From Verrucomicrobiota bacterium (GTDB lineage: Bacteria; Verrucomicrobiota; Kiritimatiellia; JAAZAB01), in contig JAHIJO010000141.1 in the NCBI GenBank assembly GCA_018898455.1, positions 1 to 42,395 of the forward strand: 42,395 bases of DNA, in the 5' to 3' direction. Below are positions 10,811 through 23,888 of this stretch, piece after piece. How positions within the stretch are numbered: position 1 is the stretch's first letter; every line of letters starts with the position of its first letter. The notes beneath the pieces were generated by a model that did not search any database, was not told the origin of the DNA, and was given only the letters and a program-made list of their open reading frames with translations. A program made the translations under genes and the position numbers.

Positions 10811-11611
10811 CTACTTGGCTGCCTTGGCATGTTTATCGCGGGCAATCACATAGCGTTTGAGATGGTATGTGATCAGGTGAATATCCGCATCGTCGATCTG
10901 GCTATTGAGTTTTGCGACTGTGTTGACAAAGGATCTCTCGTTCATTACCCACACCGTGGGCCACTCAACGGATGCCGTGACATACCAGCCCGGATACAAC
11001 ACAACGGGATGAACCTTGAATTGTTTGCCGGCACTGGACTCGATGAGATCGTACAGCCATCCGGCTTGTGCCTTGGCCTGGGCTACAGGATCACGGTCAG
11101 GTTGGAAACCGTTTACTTTGATTTTTTCACCATCGTAGGTGACTACGCACGATCCTTTTGCCGGCTTGCTATTAGTCTTGGTCTCGACAGTGTAAATCCC
11201 GGCAGGACCGATCAGCACGTGGTCCACGTTGAAGTTGTCGGCTTGAATATCGTGCAACACCTGATACCCGGCCGGGCGCAATTTCTCCTCCAGGAACTGA
11301 CCGACAGCTTCTTCACCGGTTTGTCCCAGACGAAGTGGTTTTATTTCCTTTATTGTCCGCCATATCTTCACTACGGCAATTATGGCCATCAAGACGGCGA
11401 TTATGGTGAATAGCCAAGGCGATCTTGGGGTATTGAAGAAAACGGCGATCCAATCGATAGAGGCAATTATGATCATGCAAAGCGTGATGGTCACCCACGG
11501 CATGAGGCCTTCGTCAACCAGGTAGTCAATGCGTTCCCGGAGAGACTGCCCCGGCAGTCGGACCGGCAGGTCTTTGATCGGGCTTTTCTTATATTCTTTA
11601 TTCTCAGTCAT
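10811..11611 (-). CDS. NERD (nuclease-related) domain membrane protein
   Basis: LGQTGEEAVGQFLEEKLRPAGYQVLHDIQADNFNVDHVLIGPAGIYTVETKTNSKP is the NERD signature. Two hydrophobic segments precede it. Confidence 0.8.
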   Translation of the reverse strand: MTENKEYKKSPIKDLPVRLPGQSLRERIDYLVDEGLMPWVTITLCMIIIASIDWIAVFFNTPRSPWLFTIIAVLMAIIAVVKIWRTIKEIKPLRLGQTGEEAVGQFLEEKLRPAGYQVLHDIQADNFNVDHVLIGPAGIYTVETKTNSKPAKGSCVVTYDGEKIKVNGFQPDRDPVAQAKAQAGWLYDLIESSAGKQFKVHPVVLYPGWYVTASVEWPTVWVMNERSFVNTVAKLNSQIDDADIHLITYHLKRYVIARDKHAKAAK

Positions 11612-11701: not shown

Positions 11702-14371
11702 TCAATCTGCTTGAACATCGCTGGCAAAAATTGAAGTCTTGGTATTATGTTGTGCCATGATGACAGGCCAATAGAAAGGGGCTCCCCGCCAACCATCTTC
11801 CTCCAAGCCCTTTTGTTTGATCATCAGGAGTGCTGGTATGTCCACCGCCGTACAGCGAGCGAGTTCGCCTTCCTTGTGATATGTGTCAGGCGCGTTTGAG
11901 AAGCGCCCCTCCTCTCTGATGCGCTTCATGGTGCGATCAGTCCTAACGATGCACCAGATGTTGCCCCGCCGAATGGGGGCCTCGCACTGGTTACTAAGAT
12001 GTTGGATGGCCGCTTTTGCCGCCTCCACGTCCCACTCGTAGAATTGTTCGAACTCCAAGGTTTTGTATGCTTCCGCAACAAGGTTAATAGCCGTTTCTAC
12101 AGAAATGAGAAAAGGGTCGGTAGGGAGAGGGTCGCCTCCCTTTATCTTGAGTGTTTCATCAATGTGTTGAACCGTCCTGGCAATGCGAGTCTTATAGCCG
12201 GTCTGAAAGCCGACTGGCAGAAGCCGGGTGTAAGGTTTAAGTGTTGTTGTCGTTGATAGGATTATCTTGTTTGGACTGCACGGCTTAATGGTGCCGTCGG
12301 GATCCTTTTGAATGAAGTATACGCCCCGGTTATCCCCTTCTTCGATTGAGTCCCTTAGTGCGGTATCAATTTGATGTATGCGCTGCATGGCTGCATAGAT
12401 TTTAGGTGTCGTGTAAAACCGCGTGACGGCGAGATCTTCGATTGGTCTAAACCCAAACATCCGGGAGTGTTGCAGTACTGTGTCCTGCTGCATGGTCTTG
12501 GGATTCCGCCCGTAGTAAAATCCTGTTAGATTCGCGATGGTAAGGCCGCGGTCCAGAATCTGTCCGCCGATAAACAGATTGAGGGGCGTGCGCAACTTGA
12601 GTTGGCCGCGGTCATCGAGCAATTCCTGCACTTGGACGTCCGAATTCACTATGGAGATAACGAGGTGGTCGTCATGGAGAGCGGAGGCTGCTTTCTCTTT
12701 AACCAGCTCGTAGGGCGGCAGAAACACGTGTGTGCAGCGCATGGAACGTGCAAGGTCGTCGAACGCGTCACGGAAGAGCGTTTCCGGGATGGAGGGGTTG
12801 GAGGTCAGTGCCTGGGTAAGTTGGGATCTGAGCGCCTCCACGATTTTCGCCTGCCATTCATGTGGCTCGCGCTTTGCCTCAGTGTGAACCAGGAAGCTAT
12901 ACTTCTGCTCGGTGGCCTTCCGTTGCTTCTCTTGGATTTGGCGGATGCACCCGCCGACGAGGAAATTGACAAATGCGGCACGGAGGGCGCTAATGGCCTT
13001 GCTTGTGAGGGCGTTCTCAAGTTTGAACTTGCGGCCGTCGGGGTGCCGCAGTACCTCGAGTTCCTGCTCGCCGACGGCGTGGAAAAGGCTGGATGCAACG
13101 GTCTCGTTCCTTTCGGACTCGTCGAAGTAGTAGTCGCCCCCGATATAGGCAGGGGCTACGGGCACGAGTTCAGTGAAGGTCGGTCTGGTCGGTTTAAAGA
13201 TCATATCCGGGCCGATGGCCACATCTTTAGGCTGGAGGTAGAGGGAATACGGGGTGGCGGTGACCTGAAGGAATGAACAATCAGTAAGCCGGTTGCGTAT
13301 GGCGTCGAGTTGGCTGGCGATTTTCGCGAGTTGAACACCCTCCGTCTTGCTGCGTCTGAAACCGACACTGGCGTAGTCAGCCTCGTCGTCGATGATCAGT
13401 AACTTGCGCTCGGACAGTGCGGGGTAGGACTTGAAGAGTACATTTTCCAGCCGCTTCATGTTTTTATTTTCTTTCTTGACGACGAAAACCAATTTTTTCT
13501 TCAGTTCCCATTTGTTGAGGTTCGACGGCATTTTCATGATGTCGTAGACATCTAGCCGGTCGTCGCGGATGAATTGGGCATACTCATTCCGAAGCCTCTG
13601 CAGGGTCTGCGTTGCCAGGGCGACGGTCCCCTTTGTGAGAACAATGGAGACCTCGTAGTCTTGATCGAACGCCAACGCGATGACACCTGTGAATGTGCGT
13701 GTCTTTCCGCTTTGGATCTTCCCGAGGAGCATGCCCGGGTGTTGCGATGAGGTTGTCTTCTCGCGTAGTCTGTGGACTGTGCGCCAGATGGCGCATTTGA
13801 GGTCCTGGCTATAGTCCCCGTTGTCGGCCACAAAATTACTGTAGAAGTGCCCGTCCAGCCGCATGTCTTGTGCCCAGATTGTGGCTTCGTCGTTTCGGAA
13901 AGTGTGTCGCTCCTGTTGTGCCCATGACTTTGCGAGCACTGGGCTGGCCTGGAAAAGACGTTCCTCTCCCTGGTGAATCGTGGAGTTAACACCATCGAGG
14001 ACATGGAGGAAGCGAAGAACTTCCAGTCGTACGAAGGGGTATGGCTGGAGTTCTGCCCTGGTGGCACTCAATTCTTGGGCGACTTGGCCTTGGGTACCTG
14101 CAATTATTGCTCCCGATGGAAGAAGGAAGGCGTGATAGGTGGGGTCACCATGGCTGAAGACCTGTCGCGTGTTCGCCAAAGGCGGGACGATGTCTGCTAT
14201 GGACTCTGGGTCATCGAACCGGCTGAATGTGGTAACGTTCCCGTCTTGAACTTCATCTTGTATCCAATGTTCGCTCCCGTCGGTAAGAATGGGAAGGAGA
14301 AAACCTGTCTTCTGGCGCATCGGGTTGACGTAGCCCAGGAGGGTTAGAGGGAGTAGGGAATCTACAGCCAT
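11702..14371 (-). CDS. Z1 domain-containing ATPase/helicase-like protein
   Basis: Walker A GMLLGKIQSGKTRTFTGV, Walker B LLIIDDEADYASVGF, FLQVTATPYSLYLQP, FIGGQILDRGLTIANLTGFYYGR, DTVLQHSRMFGFR: Z1 family motifs. Confidence 0.85.
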   Translation of the reverse strand: MAVDSLLPLTLLGYVNPMRQKTGFLLPILTDGSEHWIQDEVQDGNVTTFSRFDDPESIADIVPPLANTRQVFSHGDPTYHAFLLPSGAIIAGTQGQVAQELSATRAELQPYPFVRLEVLRFLHVLDGVNSTIHQGEERLFQASPVLAKSWAQQERHTFRNDEATIWAQDMRLDGHFYSNFVADNGDYSQDLKCAIWRTVHRLREKTTSSQHPGMLLGKIQSGKTRTFTGVIALAFDQDYEVSIVLTKGTVALATQTLQRLRNEYAQFIRDDRLDVYDIMKMPSNLNKWELKKKLVFVVKKENKNMKRLENVLFKSYPALSERKLLIIDDEADYASVGFRRSKTEGVQLAKIASQLDAIRNRLTDCSFLQVTATPYSLYLQPKDVAIGPDMIFKPTRPTFTELVPVAPAYIGGDYYFDESERNETVASSLFHAVGEQELEVLRHPDGRKFKLENALTSKAISALRAAFVNFLVGGCIRQIQEKQRKATEQKYSFLVHTEAKREPHEWQAKIVEALRSQLTQALTSNPSIPETLFRDAFDDLARSMRCTHVFLPPYELVKEKAASALHDDHLVISIVNSDVQVQELLDDRGQLKLRTPLNLFIGGQILDRGLTIANLTGFYYGRNPKTMQQDTVLQHSRMFGFRPIEDLAVTRFYTTPKIYAAMQRIHQIDTALRDSIEEGDNRGVYFIQKDPDGTIKPCSPNKIILSTTTTLKPYTRLLPVGFQTGYKTRIARTVQHIDETLKIKGGDPLPTDPFLISVETAINLVAEAYKTLEFEQFYEWDVEAAKAAIQHLSNQCEAPIRRGNIWCIVRTDRTMKRIREEGRFSNAPDTYHKEGELARCTAVDIPALLMIKQKGLEEDGWRGAPFYWPVIMAQHNTKTSIFASDVQAD

Positions 14372-15123
14372 CTTTTCTCCTCACAGTGTTTCCTGACTAG
14401 GAGTCGCAGATGGGCATGGAATTCGCTGGGCCTGAAGCTTTTGTAAAGTTCATATGCCAGGGGGGCGGCATCCCACGTCGAAAGGACGTTCTTGACGTCA
14501 TCGTTTTCAAGAAAACTGTGCGGTAGAGCGACTGCCGCTATGCGGCCATTCAGATCAATCGGCTGGTCGACTTGGTACTCGACGGCGGACTTCCGGTCGT
14601 CACAATCTTTATCGCCGCCGCCGTTGTTAAGGTTATAGTATTTTCGAGCGGGCGTTCCCGCGGGAGGTATGGTCAGGTTCATGTCGAGCATTCCCGACCA
14701 ATATTTCTCGTTCGTGCTGAAGAAGCCGACGACCAGGCGTTGCGCGGCTTGGGTTACGGACTTAAGGTCGTATGTATCAACATCGGCAGGATCGATCTCA
14801 GGGTGGTACAATAGATCTTTACCGGCGCCTGAGTCGAATGGGAAGACTCTCTTCACCCCGGCTGTTACAGTGCCAGGGGTGATAATCAGGCAAACCGGCG
14901 CGTATATGGTGTCATGTCGGACCGTATTGGCATCTTTTACCCGGTATGCTGGTTTGCCATAGAAGAAGTAGACCAGTGGTTCCTTGTATCTGGGACACTG
15001 GCTGGGATTCAGGCAACCTGAGTTTACGATGTCCGCAAAACTGGTCCAGGTCGTTACGTGGGTCAAGGGCAGTTCGCTCACATATGCGTCTTTCTGCTGT
15101 ACGTGCTCTGCAAATGTTACCAC
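14362..15123 (-). CDS. Uncharacterised protein with possible ADP-ribosyltransferase (DarT-like) features
   Basis: LTHVTTWTSFADIVNSGCLNPSQCPRYKEPLVYFFYGKPAYR and a later DRKSAVEYQVDQPIDLNGRIAAVALP give an H...Y...E order reminiscent of DarT/ART folds. Overlaps the Z1 gene start by 10 nt. Confidence 0.4.
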   Translation of the reverse strand: MVTFAEHVQQKDAYVSELPLTHVTTWTSFADIVNSGCLNPSQCPRYKEPLVYFFYGKPAYRVKDANTVRHDTIYAPVCLIITPGTVTAGVKRVFPFDSGAGKDLLYHPEIDPADVDTYDLKSVTQAAQRLVVGFFSTNEKYWSGMLDMNLTIPPAGTPARKYYNLNNGGGDKDCDDRKSAVEYQVDQPIDLNGRIAAVALPHSFLENDDVKNVLSTWDAAPLAYELYKSFRPSEFHAHLRLLVRKHCEEKRWL

Positions 15124-15138
15124 AGGACATTGCCCTCC

Positions 15139-17526
15139 CTAGTAGGCGCAGTTCAGTACCTCGTCGAGTGTCGCGGTGAAGGGCAGAGGGGAGGCGATTT
15201 CGGCGATTCCCCGGTGCTTCAGGAGCTGGCGCACGTTCCAGTGGTAGTGTACGAACTCGGGCGCTGAATCGACGCGGTACACGAGATAATAATCAGATCC
15301 TGTCTTCAAGGGGTAGTGATACTTTCTCTTGAGTGTGGCGGCGGTGATGACTTCCGGGGGCGTGGGTTTGCCGTCGCCAGCCGTTATCACGGCATAAAGG
15401 CCGGTCGCAGCCTCCTGCCCGTGTTTGTGGAGCAGAATGTAATAAGCGCCGACGTTTTCCGAAGTCAGAGGGACAGCTCCGCGTTTTTCGCCGACGCGGA
15501 GAATCAGCAGGTGCTTTTCGTCGGTCCAGCGGAGTTGAGTCTCGTTCTGATACCACGCGACGAGGACAGGGGTCTCTCGCGGAGGCAGGGCGCGGCGACC
15601 GTTGATGTCGTATTCGGCGATGGGTGCCTTGCGGACGGCAAGCGGTCCGGGCTTGTCATGAATGCGGTAGCGGTGGTAGGTCTCCTGCTCACGGCGGGTG
15701 GCGCGGTCACAGACATGGGCGACGATTTGGAGCATGAAGTCCTTTAGCGCCTTGGTGCCGTCCTCTTCTCCCTCGGTCGGACGAATGGAGAATGCTCCGA
15801 GTCCCGGGACAATCTCATGGAAACCCCACCATGTGCGTGTCAGGGATCCCGGGTACAGAACGTAGGCGCCAGCGGTGCGGCGGATCGCGTCCCTGTAAGC
15901 GTGCATCTTGAGGAGATCCGCCCTCTTGTAGGTGCCGGCCCGCTCCTGCTCTTTCTCCTCGGACAACCGGCTCTCCAGGTTCCTCGCCCCGGTTTGTTTG
16001 TCCGTCTTGCCGAAGATGTCCTCCAGTTTCTCGACGCGATACTTGGCGTCGAAATGCACATGGACGATCAGTTCCTGTTCTTCGGCCTGCTGTTCACTGA
16101 AACCTATTGGCCACAGTGAAAGCGTGTAGTCGGGGCGCATGCTGGCCGTCCAGCTTCCTCTGAGCGGGAAGTTCGGGGCGGCGTCATCTCCTCTTCGCGG
16201 GAAGGTACGATTGTAGGAGAAACGGACGTTCAACTCGCGCTGTCCCTTGTTGTATACTCCCTTCAGGGCGACATGCCGCCCCGCCCTTAATTTAAGGCCG
16301 AAGCCATCGTCTGTTTTCGTTATCAGGGACTGCGCCGGAGGGGTGGCGAGCGTAAAGACGTCGGCGACGACGTCCAGAAGCCGGAAGAAGAGCCAGTACT
16401 CGTATAGGGTGGCGACATCGCGTTTGCCGGCACCATAAACGTCCGCTCCGCCCGACCAGCAGATGCGCGCTGCCATGTCAAACTGCAGCCATGCTGCGAG
16501 AATCTCGCGGTATCCTCCCTTGCGCTGAAGAACAGGACTGCCAAGGGGCAGGATGCGCGGTTCCGATATATCGCGGAAGAAGTCGCGGCTGAGCACTTCG
16601 GCCAGTTCCTCTTCCAGGGCGAGAGCTTCTTGGGTGAAGCGCTTATCCCCCTCACGGCCGACGTTCTCCAGCCGTTCGCGGATCAGGGCCACGAACGCCT
16701 GGAACGTCCGGAGGGCGTGCTTCACAAATCGGTTCTCGGCGGTGTCCACGGTCTCGACGTTGCGGAGGACGGTCACGCGTTCCGGCACGGATGCCATGCG
16801 CGAGTGGAGCGGATGGCCGGCTGGCAGAGGGACTCGGCGTGAGGCGGATGCGATCTGGCGGGCGATGGCCGCAGTTGGTTTGATGCTGCGGTTGATAGGA
16901 ACGACGCACGCTTCCTGTTCCCAAAGACGGTGTGGAATTGCAGTAATCCGTTGGACGGCGTCGCGAAACTCGCGAGAGGCCAGTAGAGAGCGGACAAAAG
17001 CGAAACGTTGACAGAGGGTCTCGGGGTCGCGGGTCTCGTCGGGGAGCAATGTCTGTTGGGCCGGGGAGCGGAACTCGAGCAGCAGGTCTGTGCAGCGCTC
17101 CGTGATGTACCTCAGCATGCGGCGGTAGTCATCGCGGTAGCCAACTTTTGCCGTCCGGACCTCAACTTCGGCCGAGCCCTTTTCGCGGTCAGTTTCCGCG
17201 TCCAACAGCATAAAGCGCATGCGACCTACGTTGAGACCAGGTGTAATGCGCCCACGGTCAAGATTTTTTGGTGTGCGGCTGGACCGAACGATTCCCGGTT
17301 CAGTCCGGAGGCGGCATCCGGGCTGGTCGAGCTCGTATTCGTACGCGGCCATTTCCAGAAGTTGAACGGGGGCTTCGGCATACTCCGCGGCAGATTCGGG
17401 TGACTCCTCAATGATCAAAGGGATGGCTTCGTCGGAAGTCCCTTCGGGGTAGAGTGCCATAAGGGCGACGGGTTGTCCGTCGCCATTCGTGAACTGAACC
17501 TTGACCAATTCTTGCGCCACTGTCAT
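15139..17526 (-). CDS. DUF2357 / PDDEXK_7 McrC-like nuclease
   Basis: 795 aa; LRNVETVDTAENRFVKHALRTFQAFV typical of DUF2357; C-terminal VHFDAKYRVE...KRADLLKMHAYRDAIRRTAGAYVLYPG nuclease-like region. Confidence 0.8.
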   Translation of the reverse strand: MTVAQELVKVQFTNGDGQPVALMALYPEGTSDEAIPLIIEESPESAAEYAEAPVQLLEMAAYEYELDQPGCRLRTEPGIVRSSRTPKNLDRGRITPGLNVGRMRFMLLDAETDREKGSAEVEVRTAKVGYRDDYRRMLRYITERCTDLLLEFRSPAQQTLLPDETRDPETLCQRFAFVRSLLASREFRDAVQRITAIPHRLWEQEACVVPINRSIKPTAAIARQIASASRRVPLPAGHPLHSRMASVPERVTVLRNVETVDTAENRFVKHALRTFQAFVALIRERLENVGREGDKRFTQEALALEEELAEVLSRDFFRDISEPRILPLGSPVLQRKGGYREILAAWLQFDMAARICWSGGADVYGAGKRDVATLYEYWLFFRLLDVVADVFTLATPPAQSLITKTDDGFGLKLRAGRHVALKGVYNKGQRELNVRFSYNRTFPRRGDDAAPNFPLRGSWTASMRPDYTLSLWPIGFSEQQAEEQELIVHVHFDAKYRVEKLEDIFGKTDKQTGARNLESRLSEEKEQERAGTYKRADLLKMHAYRDAIRRTAGAYVLYPGSLTRTWWGFHEIVPGLGAFSIRPTEGEEDGTKALKDFMLQIVAHVCDRATRREQETYHRYRIHDKPGPLAVRKAPIAEYDINGRRALPPRETPVLVAWYQNETQLRWTDEKHLLILRVGEKRGAVPLTSENVGAYYILLHKHGQEAATGLYAVITAGDGKPTPPEVITAATLKRKYHYPLKTGSDYYLVYRVDSAPEFVHYHWNVRQLLKHRGIAEIASPLPFTATLDEVLNCAY

Positions 17527-19631
17527 GCCTCGGTGTAGCTGGTAAAGCCGTTGTGTTTAAGACGCAGTTCCATACGTTCTATCTTTGCATAACTGATGGG
17601 GAATCTTTCTTTCGTAACGATCTTCTTCAGTTCAGTGAGTACGGGTCCAAGTTTTGTCTTTGAACCGTGAAGTTTAGGCAGGAGTTTCTGCATGATCGCC
17701 GCGTCGAGAGCTTCATCAAGTTTCCAGCCCTCGCCAGAGACCTTTGCATGGAAGTATACAAAGCGAGAGATCTCGTACGCGGGGCGATAACCAAATTCAG
17801 CGCCGACTGTCGACAACACGGTGAACATACCATCAAGAACACTCTTTACCTCTGTTCTTTGCGTGGTTCCGAGTTCATCGAGGGATACATCTCTCCTTGC
17901 GGCCTGGGCCACAAAAAGCTCAGCATAAACGACTCCACTACCTGTGAGCCGGGAGATGTCCACTGGGTTTGGTTTGTCGAGAAAATTCGTCATGTCTGTC
18001 GCTGAGACCGTGAATTCGATAACGTTGGCCCGGTCCAACACCTTGGGGGAAAACATATATGTTGTTTCGTCCACGTTGACCGTTCCAATGACGAAGAGGT
18101 TGGGAGGGATGCGTACTTGCTCAGGTACGGCGTTTCCTTCGCCGTCTCTGTGCTCTCGGTTCTCATGGAGGGTAACTGGCTCGCCTGACTCCGTGGCTGA
18201 CAAAACATCCGCAAAGTAGCGTTCAACATGGGATAGGTTCATTTCGTCTAGGATGAGAATATATGGATGTGTTGGATCCGCTTGGGCAGCCAGGATAAGT
18301 TGTAGTGCGCCGGAAGATGGCATGCAATACCGCCCGGGTGATAGGGCGTCAGCGTAACCAAAGAGTGGGTCTTTATTGGTCCAATCAGCGCCGACCGGAA
18401 TTAGTGTGTAGGAACTGCTGTAGATTGCAGGTTCCAAGTTGGCCTCAAGTACTGCGAATGCTGCGGCCTTTAGATGTGTTTCGAAAGAGTTAAGTTGAGT
18501 GGAGTATTGTGTGTTCTCTGAAACAGCTTCTCTAATGGTGCGCGCAGGTGTGTCGCGGGTGAAGCCTTTGTTTGTAATGGTGAGGACCCATTCGGCAACG
18601 AGTTCTCTGGGAAGGCATACTTTGGTCGCCACCCCTGATTCCGGCTTGTTTGTTAGAACGATGGCGGTTGAATCAGCCGCGTGCACATAGTAACTAATTC
18701 GATCAGACTTGATCTCGCGTCCCACTGAAAATTGGTCGTGTTTGCAGGCGTGGGGTTTTGTGAGCCATGACGCAAATGCGTGTGCGAGTTTCGTCTTCCC
18801 GCTTCCGGATAAACCTGTAAGAATTACAAACCGTTTTGAACATACAGCTGCTACAAACCGCTTGCTAAGACGTGGATCTACCCGCAAGTTGGCCCTCTCA
18901 AGTGCGGATGTGAAGGCTACTACCAGTTCGCGAAGCGCTACATTTTGATCTAGCGAGTTCAGATGGCTATCAGCAGGACCTGCGATCTCTGTCAATGCCT
19001 CTTTGTTCCACGGAATATACTTATCTTCGCCGACTTGGATGGCGCCAGTCATTGCCATCACTTGGAGCATGTGGCGAATCCTTCGCTCGACCGTTTCAGG
19101 CAAGCCGTGTTTTTGCTGCTTCCCGTGATCGAGAGCTTCGGTCAGATTATCCTGGGTTGGGCGGAAATTCCGCATCACTCCATACAATACGTCTTCGAGA
19201 GTAAGAGGTGCTTTTGATAGGGAGAATGCGGCAGCCAATATCCTAAAAGGGTATTCATCCGCTTCGGCATCCTTGATCGCCGAAAGAGCCTGGGCTAAGG
19301 CATGCGGCGGATCGATCTCGCCGGCAACTATCTGTCTGCCGAAAGCCGTCACCTTGAATTTTTGATCTGTCAGATCCAGAACGCCGGTCCGCGTCCATGG
19401 GTGAGGATAATCGCGAAAAAGCGGTCTGATTTCCTTCGAGGACTGCTTCTGACTCCACTTCTCATTCGGGAATGCTTGCGCGAGTTCAGTGTAGATAGGA
19501 GACTTCTCGTCGTACACATTTTCACCCTCGTGCTGTGCGGCAATTTTCAAGACTCCGAGCCATATAATGGGATTCCAGAGGCCTTCACGGCCAGCGTCGA
19601 TTCCCGTCCACTGCACATCGTATTTGTTCAT
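17523..19631 (-). CDS. McrB-like AAA+ ATPase
   Basis: Walker A VILTGLSGSGKTKLAHAFASW, Walker B YILILDEMNLSHVERYFADVL, NLFVIGTVNVDETTYMFSPKVLDRANVIEF (McrB-type GTVNxDETT). Confidence 0.9.
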   Translation of the reverse strand: MNKYDVQWTGIDAGREGLWNPIIWLGVLKIAAQHEGENVYDEKSPIYTELAQAFPNEKWSQKQSSKEIRPLFRDYPHPWTRTGVLDLTDQKFKVTAFGRQIVAGEIDPPHALAQALSAIKDAEADEYPFRILAAAFSLSKAPLTLEDVLYGVMRNFRPTQDNLTEALDHGKQQKHGLPETVERRIRHMLQVMAMTGAIQVGEDKYIPWNKEALTEIAGPADSHLNSLDQNVALRELVVAFTSALERANLRVDPRLSKRFVAAVCSKRFVILTGLSGSGKTKLAHAFASWLTKPHACKHDQFSVGREIKSDRISYYVHAADSTAIVLTNKPESGVATKVCLPRELVAEWVLTITNKGFTRDTPARTIREAVSENTQYSTQLNSFETHLKAAAFAVLEANLEPAIYSSSYTLIPVGADWTNKDPLFGYADALSPGRYCMPSSGALQLILAAQADPTHPYILILDEMNLSHVERYFADVLSATESGEPVTLHENREHRDGEGNAVPEQVRIPPNLFVIGTVNVDETTYMFSPKVLDRANVIEFTVSATDMTNFLDKPNPVDISRLTGSGVVYAELFVAQAARRDVSLDELGTTQRTEVKSVLDGMFTVLSTVGAEFGYRPAYEISRFVYFHAKVSGEGWKLDEALDAAIMQKLLPKLHGSKTKLGPVLTELKKIVTKERFPISYAKIERMELRLKHNGFTSYTEA

Positions 19632-20773
19632 TTCTCCTCCTGAAAGAGATGCGTTTGATCTAGGACTTGTAGGATCGTTTCGAAAGGAACTGGTTCGAGG
19701 CCAAAGATCTGAGATCTGATAACGTTACCCACGGCAGCGGCGAGTAGCGGAGGCACTGCGTTGCCGATCTGGCGTATCGGATGCCGGCCGGTTCCTGCGA
19801 ATGCCCACCAGTCGGGGAATGTCTGTATTCGGGCGCTCTCCCGCGGCGTCACTTCACGTGGCTTGATCGGATGGATATGCCCCTTTCCGCCACCTTTGTC
19901 TGATCCAACGATGATCGTGAAACTGGGGCGATCAAGGTCCAATTTGTTGATGCGTGTGAAGTGGTCTCTTTCGCCCGGACGCATGCTTGCATATCTTTCT
20001 ATTATCCTTTGACTGTGATTCCGGCCTGTATGGTTTGCGGGAGGTTCCGTCCCGATGACAGGGAGACCACGCAGGGCGTGCCTGACGGTTCTCCAGCTTC
20101 TCGGCCCTTCGAATGGGCTCGTCCCGGGTTGACTTGTGATTTTGGGTATCTGGGCAATGGTCTTGCCATTTCGGGATCCTATGATAAACACTCGATCTCT
20201 GAACTGCGGGACGCCGTAATCAACGGCGTCGAGACGCAAAACGGAGAGGCTGTACTTCAGTCCTTTCTTCGGCTCGCCGATCTTTTTGCATATCTCCGTG
20301 AACACTTCGCCGCCTTCTACGGTCATTATGCCGTATACGTTTTCGAAGACGAAAGCTTGGGGTTCCAACTCGGCCAGCAGTCGCAGGTACTCATATGCGA
20401 GCAGTCCACGGTGGTCCTCTCTGCCTCTCCGTTTGCCGAAAACGCTGAATGCCTGACATGGGGGGCCGCCTGCGAGGAGATGCACTTCGTCTTTCTTTCG
20501 CCGGATTGCCTCGAGAATGAAATGGGCATCGATCTCCTTGACGTCTGAGCGATAAATGAGGGACTCTGTAAGGATTTTCTTTCCTCTTTTTGCTGCTTCG
20601 GCGCGGCCCCACTGAAGTGTTATGACACTGTGGGGATCTATGTCTGTGCAGAATCCCGTGACCCATCCGGTGGCCTCGAGCCCCAAATCCATGCCTCCGC
20701 CTCCTGAAAAGAGTGAGACAGCCTCGAGTTTTCTCTGCGGTTTATGTGGTTGAGGTTTTTCTGCTGTTTTCAT
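19628..20773 (-). CDS. dcm: DNA (cytosine-5-)-methyltransferase
   Basis: VSLFSGGGGMDLGLEATG, LLAGGPPCQAFSVFGKRRG, FVFENVYGIMT, RESARIQTFPDWWAFAG, QIGNAVPPLLA: C5-MTase motifs I, IV, VI, IX and X. Confidence 0.95.
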   Translation of the reverse strand: MKTAEKPQPHKPQRKLEAVSLFSGGGGMDLGLEATGWVTGFCTDIDPHSVITLQWGRAEAAKRGKKILTESLIYRSDVKEIDAHFILEAIRRKKDEVHLLAGGPPCQAFSVFGKRRGREDHRGLLAYEYLRLLAELEPQAFVFENVYGIMTVEGGEVFTEICKKIGEPKKGLKYSLSVLRLDAVDYGVPQFRDRVFIIGSRNGKTIAQIPKITSQPGTSPFEGPRSWRTVRHALRGLPVIGTEPPANHTGRNHSQRIIERYASMRPGERDHFTRINKLDLDRPSFTIIVGSDKGGGKGHIHPIKPREVTPRESARIQTFPDWWAFAGTGRHPIRQIGNAVPPLLAAAVGNVIRSQIFGLEPVPFETILQVLDQTHLFQEEK

Positions 20774-21342
20774 TCACCATTTAATCCGGTACGGCGAGGC
20801 GTTACCAACTGACCTCTATTGTTGAATTGGCAGAGTATTGCATGCCATTTGCGGTGTGCCAATATTTGTTTAAGTGCCTCTCCGACACGGCGTGGGCCCC
20901 CCTCGATTTGACACTCCCAGAGTACAAGGAGCCTCCAGCCGGCATTCAGTATTTCCGTTTGGATGTGCTTGTCTCTATGGACGTTCGTCTGAAGTTTTGG
21001 CCGCCAATAACGACGATTGGACTTGGGAACGCCTGAGTGTTTGCATCCCGGGTGTTGATGCCAGAAACACCCATGCACAAAGATGACCGTCCTGTGTTTC
21101 GGCATGACGATATCCGGTTTGCCGGGGAGGTCCGTCCTCCGCAGTGAGAACCGGTAGCCCATTCTGTGCAGCAGGGACCTGACCGTCCGCTCCGGCTGCG
21201 TGTCCTTGCCACGGATCCGGCTCATGTTCCAACTTCTGTGCTCTGGTGTGATCTTATCCACGTCTTGGCTGTGTTCGGTTGCTGGCGGTTTTTCGATATG
21301 GCAGTATAGACATCGGCAGTCATAAAACACCTTTTCGGGCAC
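20770..21342 (-). CDS. vsr: Vsr-family endonuclease
   Basis: SWNMSRIRGKDTQPERTVRSLLHRMGYRFSLRRTDLPGKPDIVMPKHRTVIFVHGCFWHQHPGCKHSGVPKSNRRYWRPKLQTNVHRD. The true start may be downstream of the annotated ATG. Confidence 0.93.
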   Translation of the reverse strand: MPEKVFYDCRCLYCHIEKPPATEHSQDVDKITPEHRSWNMSRIRGKDTQPERTVRSLLHRMGYRFSLRRTDLPGKPDIVMPKHRTVIFVHGCFWHQHPGCKHSGVPKSNRRYWRPKLQTNVHRDKHIQTEILNAGWRLLVLWECQIEGGPRRVGEALKQILAHRKWHAILCQFNNRGQLVTPRRTGLNGE

Positions 21343-21516
21343 TATAGCAAGTTGATTTCGGGATGCTTTCGCCGATGTGCGCGCTTTCTTTTTTATCCCG
21401 ATTCTGGTAGCGTCTTTATTGATTTCAAAGAATGTATCATAGAGCGATTATTGCGTGCTATTAAGGCGGCCGGTTATACAACCGCCTGGATGTATTCGGC
21501 ATATAGGAGATCATCA

Positions 21517-22770
21517 ATGGATCGAATATCAGTCGGCAAACAGACCATCAAAACCCTTTGGAAATGGTGTGACGAGCGCCTTTTTGCTGTTCCTGAAATC
21601 CAGAGGGAGTTTGTCTGGGACAAGCGCCGGGCCAGTGATTTGCTCGACAGCATCTATCGCTGTCTTCCAATAGGCAGTATCCTTATATGGGACGCTCATG
21701 GCGACCATCGGCATCTTTTGCGTCAGACCCAAGTCCTTTTGCCGCCCCACGATCCGTCAAACAAAAACACGTTTTTCCTCATTGACGGGCAGCAGCGGCT
21801 TTCTGTGCTCTATCGTGCCCGCAAGGGCGGCGAGGTGTTGAGTTCCAACGGCAGCCCGATCAACTTCGATCAGCTTTGCTTTAATTTTGACACCGAGAAC
21901 TACGAATCCCGCTTCCTCTTTACCCGGCGGCCCATACCTAATGTTCAAATCCCCGTCACGGATATTCTTTCCCCTGAATGGGCGAGGCGGATCAATAAAC
22001 TCCCGCACTGGAAGCGGAGTCAGATTCGTAAGTGCCGCGAAGCAATTGCCTATTACGAAGTCCCGGTCATTTCCGTCCACACCCACGAGCTGGATGAGGT
22101 GCGGGAAGCTTTTCTGCGCATCAACTCTGGCGGTCTTCGCATCAGCAAGGCTGACCGGGCCTTCAGCCGTGCCTCGCGTTTGGACTTGCGCCGGCTCATC
22201 CGCGAGCTCCGCGAGTCACTCCCGAATGGGTTCGAGGAAATTGATCCCCGCATACTGCAGGTCTCCATGGCTGTTATCGAAGGCCAGCGGGATACCAGTT
22301 CTAAGGCCGTGGAGAGCATTATTGCCAGGCTCGATAAAGCCGAGTTTGAGGACGGGGCAGCATCCAGTGAGTTTGTTCGAAAATGGAAACGTGTTAGCGA
22401 TTGCGTCAAACGATCAGTTGATTACCTGCATTTCGATCTTGGGGTCATTAATTTCAGTTTCCTGCCGTCGGACCTCATGATTGCCGTACTCGCCTTTTTC
22501 TTCCATGCCAATAACCGTGCCCAGCCCAATTCCCGTCAACGTCGGGAGATCAAGAAATGGTTCTGGGCGACCGGGATTGCCCGGAGATATGTCGGCCGCG
22601 GATACTACAACAACATTCGTCGAGATCTTGCTTTCTTTGAACGTCTCGGTCGCCGGCGCCCTGGCCGGTTTGAGTTCAAGGACCGAATGGCCGATAGGAA
22701 ATTAGGGTCACGTCTCGACAATCGACAATTCAGCATTGCCAGGAAGGTGGCGTATAGAAACGGATGGTAG
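21517..22770 (+). CDS. DUF262 domain-containing protein (GmrS-like)
   Basis: MDRISVGKQTIKTLWKWCDERLFAVPEIQREFVWDKRRASDLLDSIYRCLPIGSILIW...FFLIDGQQRLSVLYRA. Start at 21517 has ataggaga SD; the upstream extension in the track is unlikely. Confidence 0.85.
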   Translation: MDRISVGKQTIKTLWKWCDERLFAVPEIQREFVWDKRRASDLLDSIYRCLPIGSILIWDAHGDHRHLLRQTQVLLPPHDPSNKNTFFLIDGQQRLSVLYRARKGGEVLSSNGSPINFDQLCFNFDTENYESRFLFTRRPIPNVQIPVTDILSPEWARRINKLPHWKRSQIRKCREAIAYYEVPVISVHTHELDEVREAFLRINSGGLRISKADRAFSRASRLDLRRLIRELRESLPNGFEEIDPRILQVSMAVIEGQRDTSSKAVESIIARLDKAEFEDGAASSEFVRKWKRVSDCVKRSVDYLHFDLGVINFSFLPSDLMIAVLAFFFHANNRAQPNSRQRREIKKWFWATGIARRYVGRGYYNNIRRDLAFFERLGRRRPGRFEFKDRMADRKLGSRLDNRQFSIARKVAYRNGW

Positions 22771-23158: not shown

Positions 23159-23695
23159 TCATATTTCGATCATCTTGTGTCCATAGACACCGATGATCCT
23201 CGTATCACCCAACAGGGTCTCAGCATCCACGTGCTGGTGGCCATGGACGACGATTTTCGGTCTTGCCCTGAGCACGTAATCCTTGAGCGCTTCAAAACCG
23301 TAATGCACCTCGTCTTCCCGATCATGAATTCCCCTGGGCGAGTTGTGGGACAGTAGAACGTCGACCGGAGGGAATGACGCCAGCCATTTGTCGACTTCGA
23401 TTTGGTCGTACAGAAAATGCCCACGCGGTTTATACTTCCATGACCCGTTCAAGCCGCCGAATGTTACCCCGTTATGTTCATAGACCTGGAGATGCAAGTC
23501 CACGATGGGGTGCGGGAATGCAGTGTTGCTGTCATGATTGCCTTTAACGGCCAAGATGGTCGAGCAAGAGAATGCCTCTGCGGCCTCAAGAATCACCTGA
23601 TCAACAATATCGCCACAGGACAGAAGCACGTCTGCTGATCCAGATCCGCCCTTCCAATGGAAATCGTCTATGTCTGATAGCGCAAGGATTCTCAT
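23159..23695 (-). CDS. Calcineurin-like metallophosphoesterase
   Basis: MRILALSDIDDFHW...DVLLSCGDIVDQ...ILAVKGNHDSN...VDVLLSHNSPRGIHD...IVVHGHQH. Internal ATG at 23695 aligns with the family N-terminus. Confidence 0.85.
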   Translation of the reverse strand: MRILALSDIDDFHWKGGSGSADVLLSCGDIVDQVILEAAEAFSCSTILAVKGNHDSNTAFPHPIVDLHLQVYEHNGVTFGGLNGSWKYKPRGHFLYDQIEVDKWLASFPPVDVLLSHNSPRGIHDREDEVHYGFEALKDYVLRARPKIVVHGHQHVDAETLLGDTRIIGVYGHKMIEI

Positions 23696-23888
23696 CTTTT
23701 GATGTTCAATATAGCACAATATGCCAATGTTACCCAAGAACGTTTTGCCGATGATAAATATTGCCCATCGTCGGCTTGACCGCAACGGTTCTGTAGAGGG
23801 TAGAGCTTGACACTCCGGAACTGTTAGCCCATCATAATCACGCAAGAACATGATTTGTCATGCAACAACCTCAAGAGGGTAAGACACC

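What the first reader, a model, noticed from the sequence alone, without database searches (positions are those of the whole stretch)
14362..15123. Uncharacterised 253-aa protein between Z1 and DUF2357 genes may be a DarT-like ADP-ribosyltransferase
N-terminal LTHVTTWTSFADIVNSGCLNPSQCPRYKEPLVYFFYGKPAYR resembles the H...SG.L...Y start of DarT/ART folds, and the late DRKSAVEYQVDQPIDLNGRIAAVALP resembles the catalytic Glu segment. If correct, a DNA- or protein-ADP-ribosylating effector would sit inside an R-M/McrBC-like operon. No macrodomain antitoxin is visible nearby, so control might come from the operon partners. The fold call is inference from motif order only.
Basis: inference. Interest (0 to 1): 0.72.

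Follow-up and report, generated by a model that had tools for sequence, protein, structure and literature searches.

The report
ADP-ribosyltransferase with domain-swapping partner gene
The gene encodes a new family of ADP-ribosyltransferase-fold enzyme (nearest known shape: the DNA-modifying toxin DarT) that is almost always paired with a partner protein whose tail is swapped between bacteria for helicases, a methylase or extra copies of housekeeping proteins, which suggests an uncharacterised toxin-and-sensor module, possibly antiviral.

Summary
The ORF is real: minus strand, GTG start at 15123 with a ribosome site, 253 aa. No Pfam, NCBIfam, PADLOC or PDB sequence match. I collected about 70 distant relatives. 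H22 and E182 are invariant (49/49), Y52 nearly so (48/49). An AlphaFold model (pLDDT 92.9) has seven DarT chains as its top PDB matches (probability 0.85-0.99), then Tpt1 and SopF. So the ART-fold call holds. DarT family membership is not met by sequence; catalysis is untested.

In 70 of 72 loci with an intact ART gene, a partner gene follows on the same strand, usually overlapping by 4-8 nt. All partners share one N-terminal domain of about 150 aa with no known fold. Their C-termini fall into about 33 unrelated types: SNF2, UvrD and Z1 helicases, a DNA methylase, RES, cold-shock, GcrA, ribosomal protein S9, RelA/SpoT. In the window the partner is the 889-aa Z1 protein, so ART plus Z1 is an add-on behind a complete Vsr-Dcm-AAA-DUF2357 operon. 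The genomes tested keep a normal S9, GcrA or Rel; one fused Rel has lost catalytic residues.

Best reading: an ART toxin held by the partner's N-domain, with the swappable tail as sensor or decoy. The mechanism is inferred.

The parts
14362..15123 (-). ART-fold protein, 253 aa, GTG start (finding P0001)
   Evidence: ORF; relatives; AlphaFold model pLDDT 92.9; Foldseek top hits DarT
15058..15060 (-). codon of invariant His22 (candidate H of H-Y-E)
   Evidence: 49/49 in alignment A2
14968..14970 (-). codon of conserved Tyr52 in YFFYGKPAY
   Evidence: 48/49, Phe once
14953..14955 (-). codon of Lys57 (Arg in 40 of 49); by motif order the counterpart of DarT2 Arg51
   Evidence: DarT R51 role from PMC11543638; equivalence is inference
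14833..14841 (-). P95-F96-D97 of the PFD[ST]GA motif
   Evidence: invariant in A2, but A2 was collected with this motif as search pattern; also conserved in plasmid relatives found by tblastn, with one PCD
14578..14580 (-). codon of invariant Glu182 (candidate catalytic Glu; D175 and R177 also invariant)
   Evidence: 49/49
13883..14371 (-). conserved partner N-domain, residues 1-163 of the 889-aa Z1 protein; its start overlaps the ART stop by 10 nt
   Evidence: HMM built without this protein: 73.9 bits, E 1e-21, best shuffle 5.5 bits; model pLDDT 87.9, no PDB fold match; overlap
11702..13849 (-). Z1 helicase part of the partner (variable C-terminal part in this locus)
   Evidence: Pfam Z1 7e-26; GKIQSGKT, IIDDEAD and TATP motifs intact
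15133..15140 (-). ribosome-binding site AGGGAGGG of the ART gene
   Evidence: sequence read
15139..17526 (-). DUF2357 + PDDEXK_7 nuclease-type gene (context, not part of the module)
   Evidence: Pfam; relatives lack ART and Z1
17523..19631 (-). AAA ATPase gene, PDC-M26A-like (context)
19628..20773 (-). C-5 cytosine methylase Dcm (context)
   Evidence: Pfam 9.6e-54
20770..21342 (-). Vsr mismatch endonuclease (context)
   Evidence: NCBIfam vsr 1.4e-42

Best explanation
The 253-aa protein is an ADP-ribosyltransferase-fold enzyme of an uncharacterised family. It forms an almost obligate two-gene module with the next gene. [Shown by computation: fold, conservation, pairing, shared N-domain, swapped C-termini.] Most likely the ART is a toxin, modifying a nucleic acid or protein with NAD+, that is bound and restrained by the partner's conserved N-domain. 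The partner's C-terminal domain is the replaceable sensor: either a decoy of a host protein that phages attack or hijack (S9, GcrA, cold-shock protein, Rel/SpoT), or a working DNA-defence protein that the toxin guards (Z1, SNF2 and UvrD helicases, methylase). Interference with the C-terminal domain would release or activate the ART and stop the infected cell. [Inferred.] In the window the sensor is a Z1 helicase, and the module sits at the 3' end of a Vsr-Dcm-AAA-DUF2357 restriction operon, where it could report anti-restriction attack. [Inferred.]
For: ART fold. Invariant H22 and E182, near-invariant Y52. Pairing: 70/72 intact ARTs; in 385 alphaproteobacterial genomes the ART profile and the N-domain profile hit exactly the same 7 genomes, side by side. 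Window Z1 carries the N-domain. About 33 C-terminal types on 67 ARTs, needing at least 32-33 changes on the ART tree, with Rel acquired twice. Housekeeping-type tails: S9, GcrA (51), CSD (51), Rel/SpoT (46). In the genomes tested for S9, GcrA and Rel the ordinary copy is still there. Fused Rel in L033 has lost residues that the same genome's own Rel keeps. Near defence genes: window R-M operon, L004 behind Vsr-Dcm-Z1-AIPR, L012 beside CBASS. ART broken with partner intact in L027, L059 and L165.
Against: No activity, toxicity, binding or phage data exist. L044 has an intact ART with the partner's N-domain split by an insertion, and L021 has an ART with no partner, so strict toxin-antitoxin dependence is not shown. 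Helicase and methylase tails keep their catalytic motifs, so they are not dead decoys. RES, FGE, TPR and many unknown tails do not obviously fit a list of phage targets. Many tails bind nucleic acid or ribosomes, which fits a targeting role equally well.
Confidence: 0.5

Rival explanations
1. Targeting model: the N-domain is a docking piece and the variable tail carries the ART to its substrate (ribosome via S9 or Rel, mRNA via cold-shock domain, DNA via GcrA, helicases, methylase). The partner is an adaptor, not a sensor.
For: Most identifiable tails bind nucleic acid or the ribosome, and the nearest folds, DarT and Tpt1, act on nucleic acids. S9, CSD and helicase tails look functional.
Against: It does not explain why the fused Rel loses catalytic residues, nor RES, FGE and TPR tails. 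A toxin with a general nucleic-acid substrate would not obviously need more than 30 different adaptors.
Confidence: 0.27
2. Plain toxin-antitoxin pair: the N-domain neutralises the ART and the C-terminal domains are passenger fusions without a sensing role.
For: Two-gene operon with 4-8 nt overlaps, sporadic spread, plasmids and prophage-like contigs.
Against: A tail is present in essentially all partners, several are intact and highly conserved (fused S9 is 75-80% identical to the host copy), and tails follow ART clades, which passengers would not be expected to do.
Confidence: 0.13
3. The ART modifies the partner's own C-terminal domain to switch it on or off (regulatory enzyme-substrate pair); the partner is the effector.
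For: Strict pairing; some tails are enzymes with intact motifs.
Against: ARTs about 50% identical are paired with unrelated tails, so a conserved substrate on the tail is unlikely; S9, CSD and GcrA are not obvious effectors.
Confidence: 0.06
4. Not an enzyme: the ART fold is kept only for binding.
For: No activity has been shown.
Against: His22 and Glu182 are invariant, and Tyr52, D175, R177 and the R/K57 loop conserved, across 49 divergent sequences.
Confidence: 0.04

Closest known systems
DarT (DarTG, DarT-NADAR toxin-antitoxin systems)
   Same: Predicted fold (top seven PDB matches); same motif order H ... YF..R.P ... D.(N/G)A ... R/K..(A)E; two-gene module with the partner downstream.
   Different: No sequence-profile match; partner is neither macrodomain nor NADAR by the searches made; partner has a swappable C-terminus.
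CmdTAC (mRNA ADP-ribosyltransferase toxin-antitoxin-chaperone, PMC11618068)
   Same: An ART toxin is the effector, and a partner (there a chaperone) senses the phage.
   Different: Three genes with a SecB-like chaperone; here one partner with a shared N-domain and about 33 kinds of tail.
PARIS, PrrC, Ronin and other effector-triggered systems (reviewed in PMC12409349)
   Same: A sensor that resembles or guards a restriction component releases a toxin.
   Different: Different toxins; no swappable housekeeping-protein tails in the passages read.
Integrated-decoy immune receptors of plants (own knowledge)
   Same: A constant signalling part joined to exchangeable copies of attacked host proteins.
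   Different: Unrelated proteins; here the constant part restrains a separate ART, by inference only.
Mza / Z1-Vsr-Dcm systems
   Same: Z1 helicase, Dcm and Vsr genes.
   Different: Window Z1 carries the ART-partner N-domain; MzaC match is far below cut-off (69.8 of 1500 bits).

Membership tests
ADP-ribosyltransferase (ART) fold | ART fold | tested here: met
   AlphaFold pLDDT 92.9, pTM 0.91; PDB matches DarT, Tpt1 and SopF lead the list, probability up to 0.99. TM only 0.34-0.51 for the DarT chains.
ADP-ribosyltransferase (ART) fold | H-Y-E (or variant) active-site residues conserved | tested here: met
   H22 49/49, Y52 48/49, E182 49/49. Which Tyr is the motif Tyr is not settled: in DarT2 it is Y71, after R51.
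ADP-ribosyltransferase (ART) fold | NAD+-dependent transferase activity | not testable with these tools
   needs an assay
DarT (PF14487) | match to the family profile | tested here: not met
   no Pfam DarT hit for the window protein or any of 10 relatives; hhalign of A2 with 13 DarTs scores 19.2 against 21.4 for the best of 60 column-shuffled controls
DarT (PF14487) | downstream macrodomain (DarG) or NADAR antitoxin | tested here: not met
   partner N-domain has no Pfam or PDB fold match; the genome's macrodomain is on another contig
DarT (PF14487) | ADP-ribosylates DNA bases | not testable with these tools
   needs an assay
Known anti-phage systems (PADLOC-DB 2023) | ART protein matches a model | tested here: not met
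   no credible hit among 49 members
Toxin-antitoxin module | two genes, obligate pairing, overlapping frames | tested here: met
   70/72; 7 of 7 genomes in both directions
Toxin-antitoxin module | toxin lost before antitoxin in decaying copies | tested here: inconclusive
   three loci with ART broken and partner intact (L027, L059, L165), but L044 and L021 go the other way
Toxin-antitoxin module | toxicity and neutralisation | not testable with these tools
   needs expression tests
Integrated decoy/guard | tail is an extra copy of a protein the host also keeps | tested here: met
   S9 in 2 genomes, GcrA in 2, Rel in the genome of L033; other tail types not tested
Integrated decoy/guard | catalytic residues lost in enzyme-like tails | tested here: inconclusive
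   Rel in L033 dead-looking and Rel in L113 degenerate in the synthetase; Z1, SNF2, UvrD and methylase tails intact

The most novel reading that the evidence does not exclude
Bacteria carry an immune module that works like plant integrated-decoy receptors: one constant ART toxin, one constant restraining domain, and an exchangeable decoy domain copied from host proteins (ribosomal protein S9, GcrA, cold-shock protein, Rel/SpoT) or DNA-defence enzymes. Each decoy would reveal which host function phages attack.
Probability: 0.33. Interest if true: 0.93.

Novelty: new variant of a known kind. Interest (0 to 1): 0.78.

Why it matters
A family of ART-fold proteins with no entry in Pfam, NCBIfam or PADLOC is tied to a second protein whose tail has been exchanged at least about 32 times, including for second copies of essential proteins. 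If the sensor reading is right, the list of tails is a catalogue of host functions that phages attack, each testable by swapping tails in one laboratory strain. If the targeting reading is right, it is a natural system for delivering ADP-ribosylation to chosen sites on ribosome, RNA or DNA. Either way it changes how the Z1 gene in this operon is read.

Tried and rejected
Search of genome contigs with the single sequence found nothing; the 11-row alignment was needed. No match in phages. Profile-profile link to DarT by sequence: right register at the first block but not better than shuffled columns, so membership was dropped. Macrodomain or NADAR antitoxin next door: none among the proteins tested. 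ART as integral part of the DUF2357 restriction system: rejected, none of 14 related loci carries ART or Z1. My first catalytic-motif pattern missed the SNF2 Walker A in L013; reading the sequence shows DEVGLGKT, so it is intact. Toxin-antitoxin decay asymmetry: not clean (L044, L021). PDB sequence searches with clusters of tails of unknown type gave nothing credible. Literature searches for such a module found no description; the library lacks most subscription papers. The longest frame in L155 was not the Rel frame, so it was not used as reference.

Full report
The observation. The finding's frame is real and on the minus strand: 14362-15123, 253 aa, GTG start with AGGGAGGG upstream. It has no match in Pfam, NCBIfam, PADLOC or PDB sequences. 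It lies between a DUF2357/PDDEXK_7 gene and a Z1 gene, in a run of minus-strand genes: Vsr, Dcm, AAA, DUF2357, ART, Z1. Junctions overlap by 4 nt, except for a 15-nt gap before ART and a 10-nt overlap between ART and Z1.

Relatives. tblastn found 12 plasmid records, 24-35% identical. An 11-row alignment then brought in 56 loci, mostly Alphaproteobacteria, with some Betaproteobacteria, Verrucomicrobiota, Planctomycetota and Clostridia. In 49 aligned proteins H22, C43, F54, P76, D175, R177 and E182 are invariant, Y52 is Tyr in 48, and position 57 is Arg or Lys in all. The PFD[ST]GA motif is also invariant, but it was the search pattern, so that part is by construction. H22, Y52 and E182 were not in the pattern.

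Fold. AlphaFold2 on these 49 rows gives pLDDT 92.9 and pTM 0.91. Against the PDB the first seven matches are DarT chains (Thermus DarT with and without NAD+, M. tuberculosis DarTG, E. coli DarT1), probability 0.85-0.99, best E 2.7e-3, TM 0.35-0.51; then tRNA 2'-phosphotransferase Tpt1 and SopF, both ART folds. Sequence profiles do not link it to DarT: score 19.2 against up to 21.4 for column-shuffled controls. By motif order the YFFYGKPAY segment corresponds to DarT's FYF..RSPM, which holds R51; PFDSGA to D.NA; and R..AVE to the catalytic-Glu segment. This is inference. In DarT2 the motif Tyr is Y71, after R51 (PMC11543638), so Y52 may not be the [H-Y-E] Tyr.

The partner. In 70 of 72 loci with an intact ART frame, the next gene on the same strand encodes a protein with one conserved N-domain; the commonest gap is -4 nt. 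A few loci are near-duplicates (L064/L068, L066/L067, L026/L108, L007/L110). A profile of this domain built without the window protein finds the N-terminus of the window's Z1 protein at 73.9 bits, against 5.5 for the best of 200 shuffles. Eight later loci not used in the profile also match. The clearest test: among 385 alphaproteobacterial genomes the ART profile hits 7 and the N-domain profile hits the same 7, adjacent. The N-domain is modelled with confidence (pLDDT 87.9) but matches nothing in the PDB (best E 0.55).

The swapped tails. C-terminal parts fall into 33 groups by blastp. Recognisable ones: Z1 helicase (window), SNF2 (L013), UvrD-like (L116), Eco57I-type methylase (L115), RES (L022), FGE-sulfatase (L107), TPR (L011), cold-shock (L055), GcrA (L063, L065), ribosomal protein S9 (L032, L043), RelA/SpoT (L033), HD+TGS (L113). 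On the ART tree 33 types need 33 changes, and Rel and one 890-aa type arose twice. ARTs 50% identical carry unrelated tails.

Housekeeping copies. The genomes of L032 and L043 keep a separate rpsI, those of L063 and L065 separate gcrA genes, and that of L033 a separate rel. The other tails were not tested for this. Fused S9 is 75-80% identical to the host copy and keeps the SKR tail. Against the same genome's own Rel, the fused Rel of L033 reads Ser, Gly and Ala at three hydrolase metal-ligand positions and lacks the synthetase Asp (residue roles from own knowledge of Rel enzymes). L113 is degenerate in the synthetase. Helicase and methylase tails keep their motifs. So some tails look like decoys and others like working proteins.

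Relation to the restriction operon. Fourteen related AAA-DUF2357 loci, some with Dcm or Vsr, carry neither ART nor Z1. The module is therefore an add-on behind a complete operon. The nearest ART relative, in Pedosphaera (L013), also has a DNA-helicase tail.

Mechanism. Shown by computation: ART fold, conserved candidate active site, near-obligate pairing, shared N-domain, repeated tail exchange. Inferred: NAD+ chemistry, toxicity, restraint by the N-domain, sensing by the tail. The sensor/decoy model is preferred over targeting because of the dead-looking Rel and the second copies, but most tails also bind nucleic acid or ribosome, so targeting stays a serious rival. The decay pattern does not settle it: ART is broken with partner intact in L027, L059 and L165, yet L044 has an intact ART with a split partner and L021 an ART without the partner.

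Verdict. DarT membership does not. The larger finding is the module, which I did not find described in the papers searched.

Noticed in passing
window 21352-22770 (+), 10811-11611 (-), 23159-23851 (-): GmrSD_N-type, NERD nuclease-related and PDC-S10-like genes flank the operon, so this looks like a defence island.
   Followed up: partly
L021:8656-9846: ART-family domain fused behind a pentapeptide-repeat-like segment, without the N-domain partner and lacking the otherwise invariant Cys43.
   Followed up: partly
L004:1-12452: Rhizobium plasmid with Vsr, Dcm, ATPase, a separate Z1, PD-(D/E)XK and AIPR genes followed directly by an ART + 902-aa partner module.
   Followed up: partly
L012:9001-12682: Broken ART remnant in Paraburkholderia next to a CBASS operon.
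   Followed up: no
L165:1564-4221: Next to an IS110 transposase only the last 29 codons of the ART gene remain, while the partner gene is intact.
   Followed up: yes
L044:9729-12117: About 1.3 kb inserted after codon 32 of the partner, splitting its N-domain while the ART stays intact.
   Followed up: partly
L107-L110: Four members lie on contigs called viral in IMG/VR, suggesting carriage by prophages; two of them match host loci already found.
   Followed up: no
L147, L148, L149: Three-gene plasmid systems of site-specific methylase, second gene and DUF2357 nuclease recur without Z1 or ART; two start with a HigA-type antitoxin gene.
   Followed up: no
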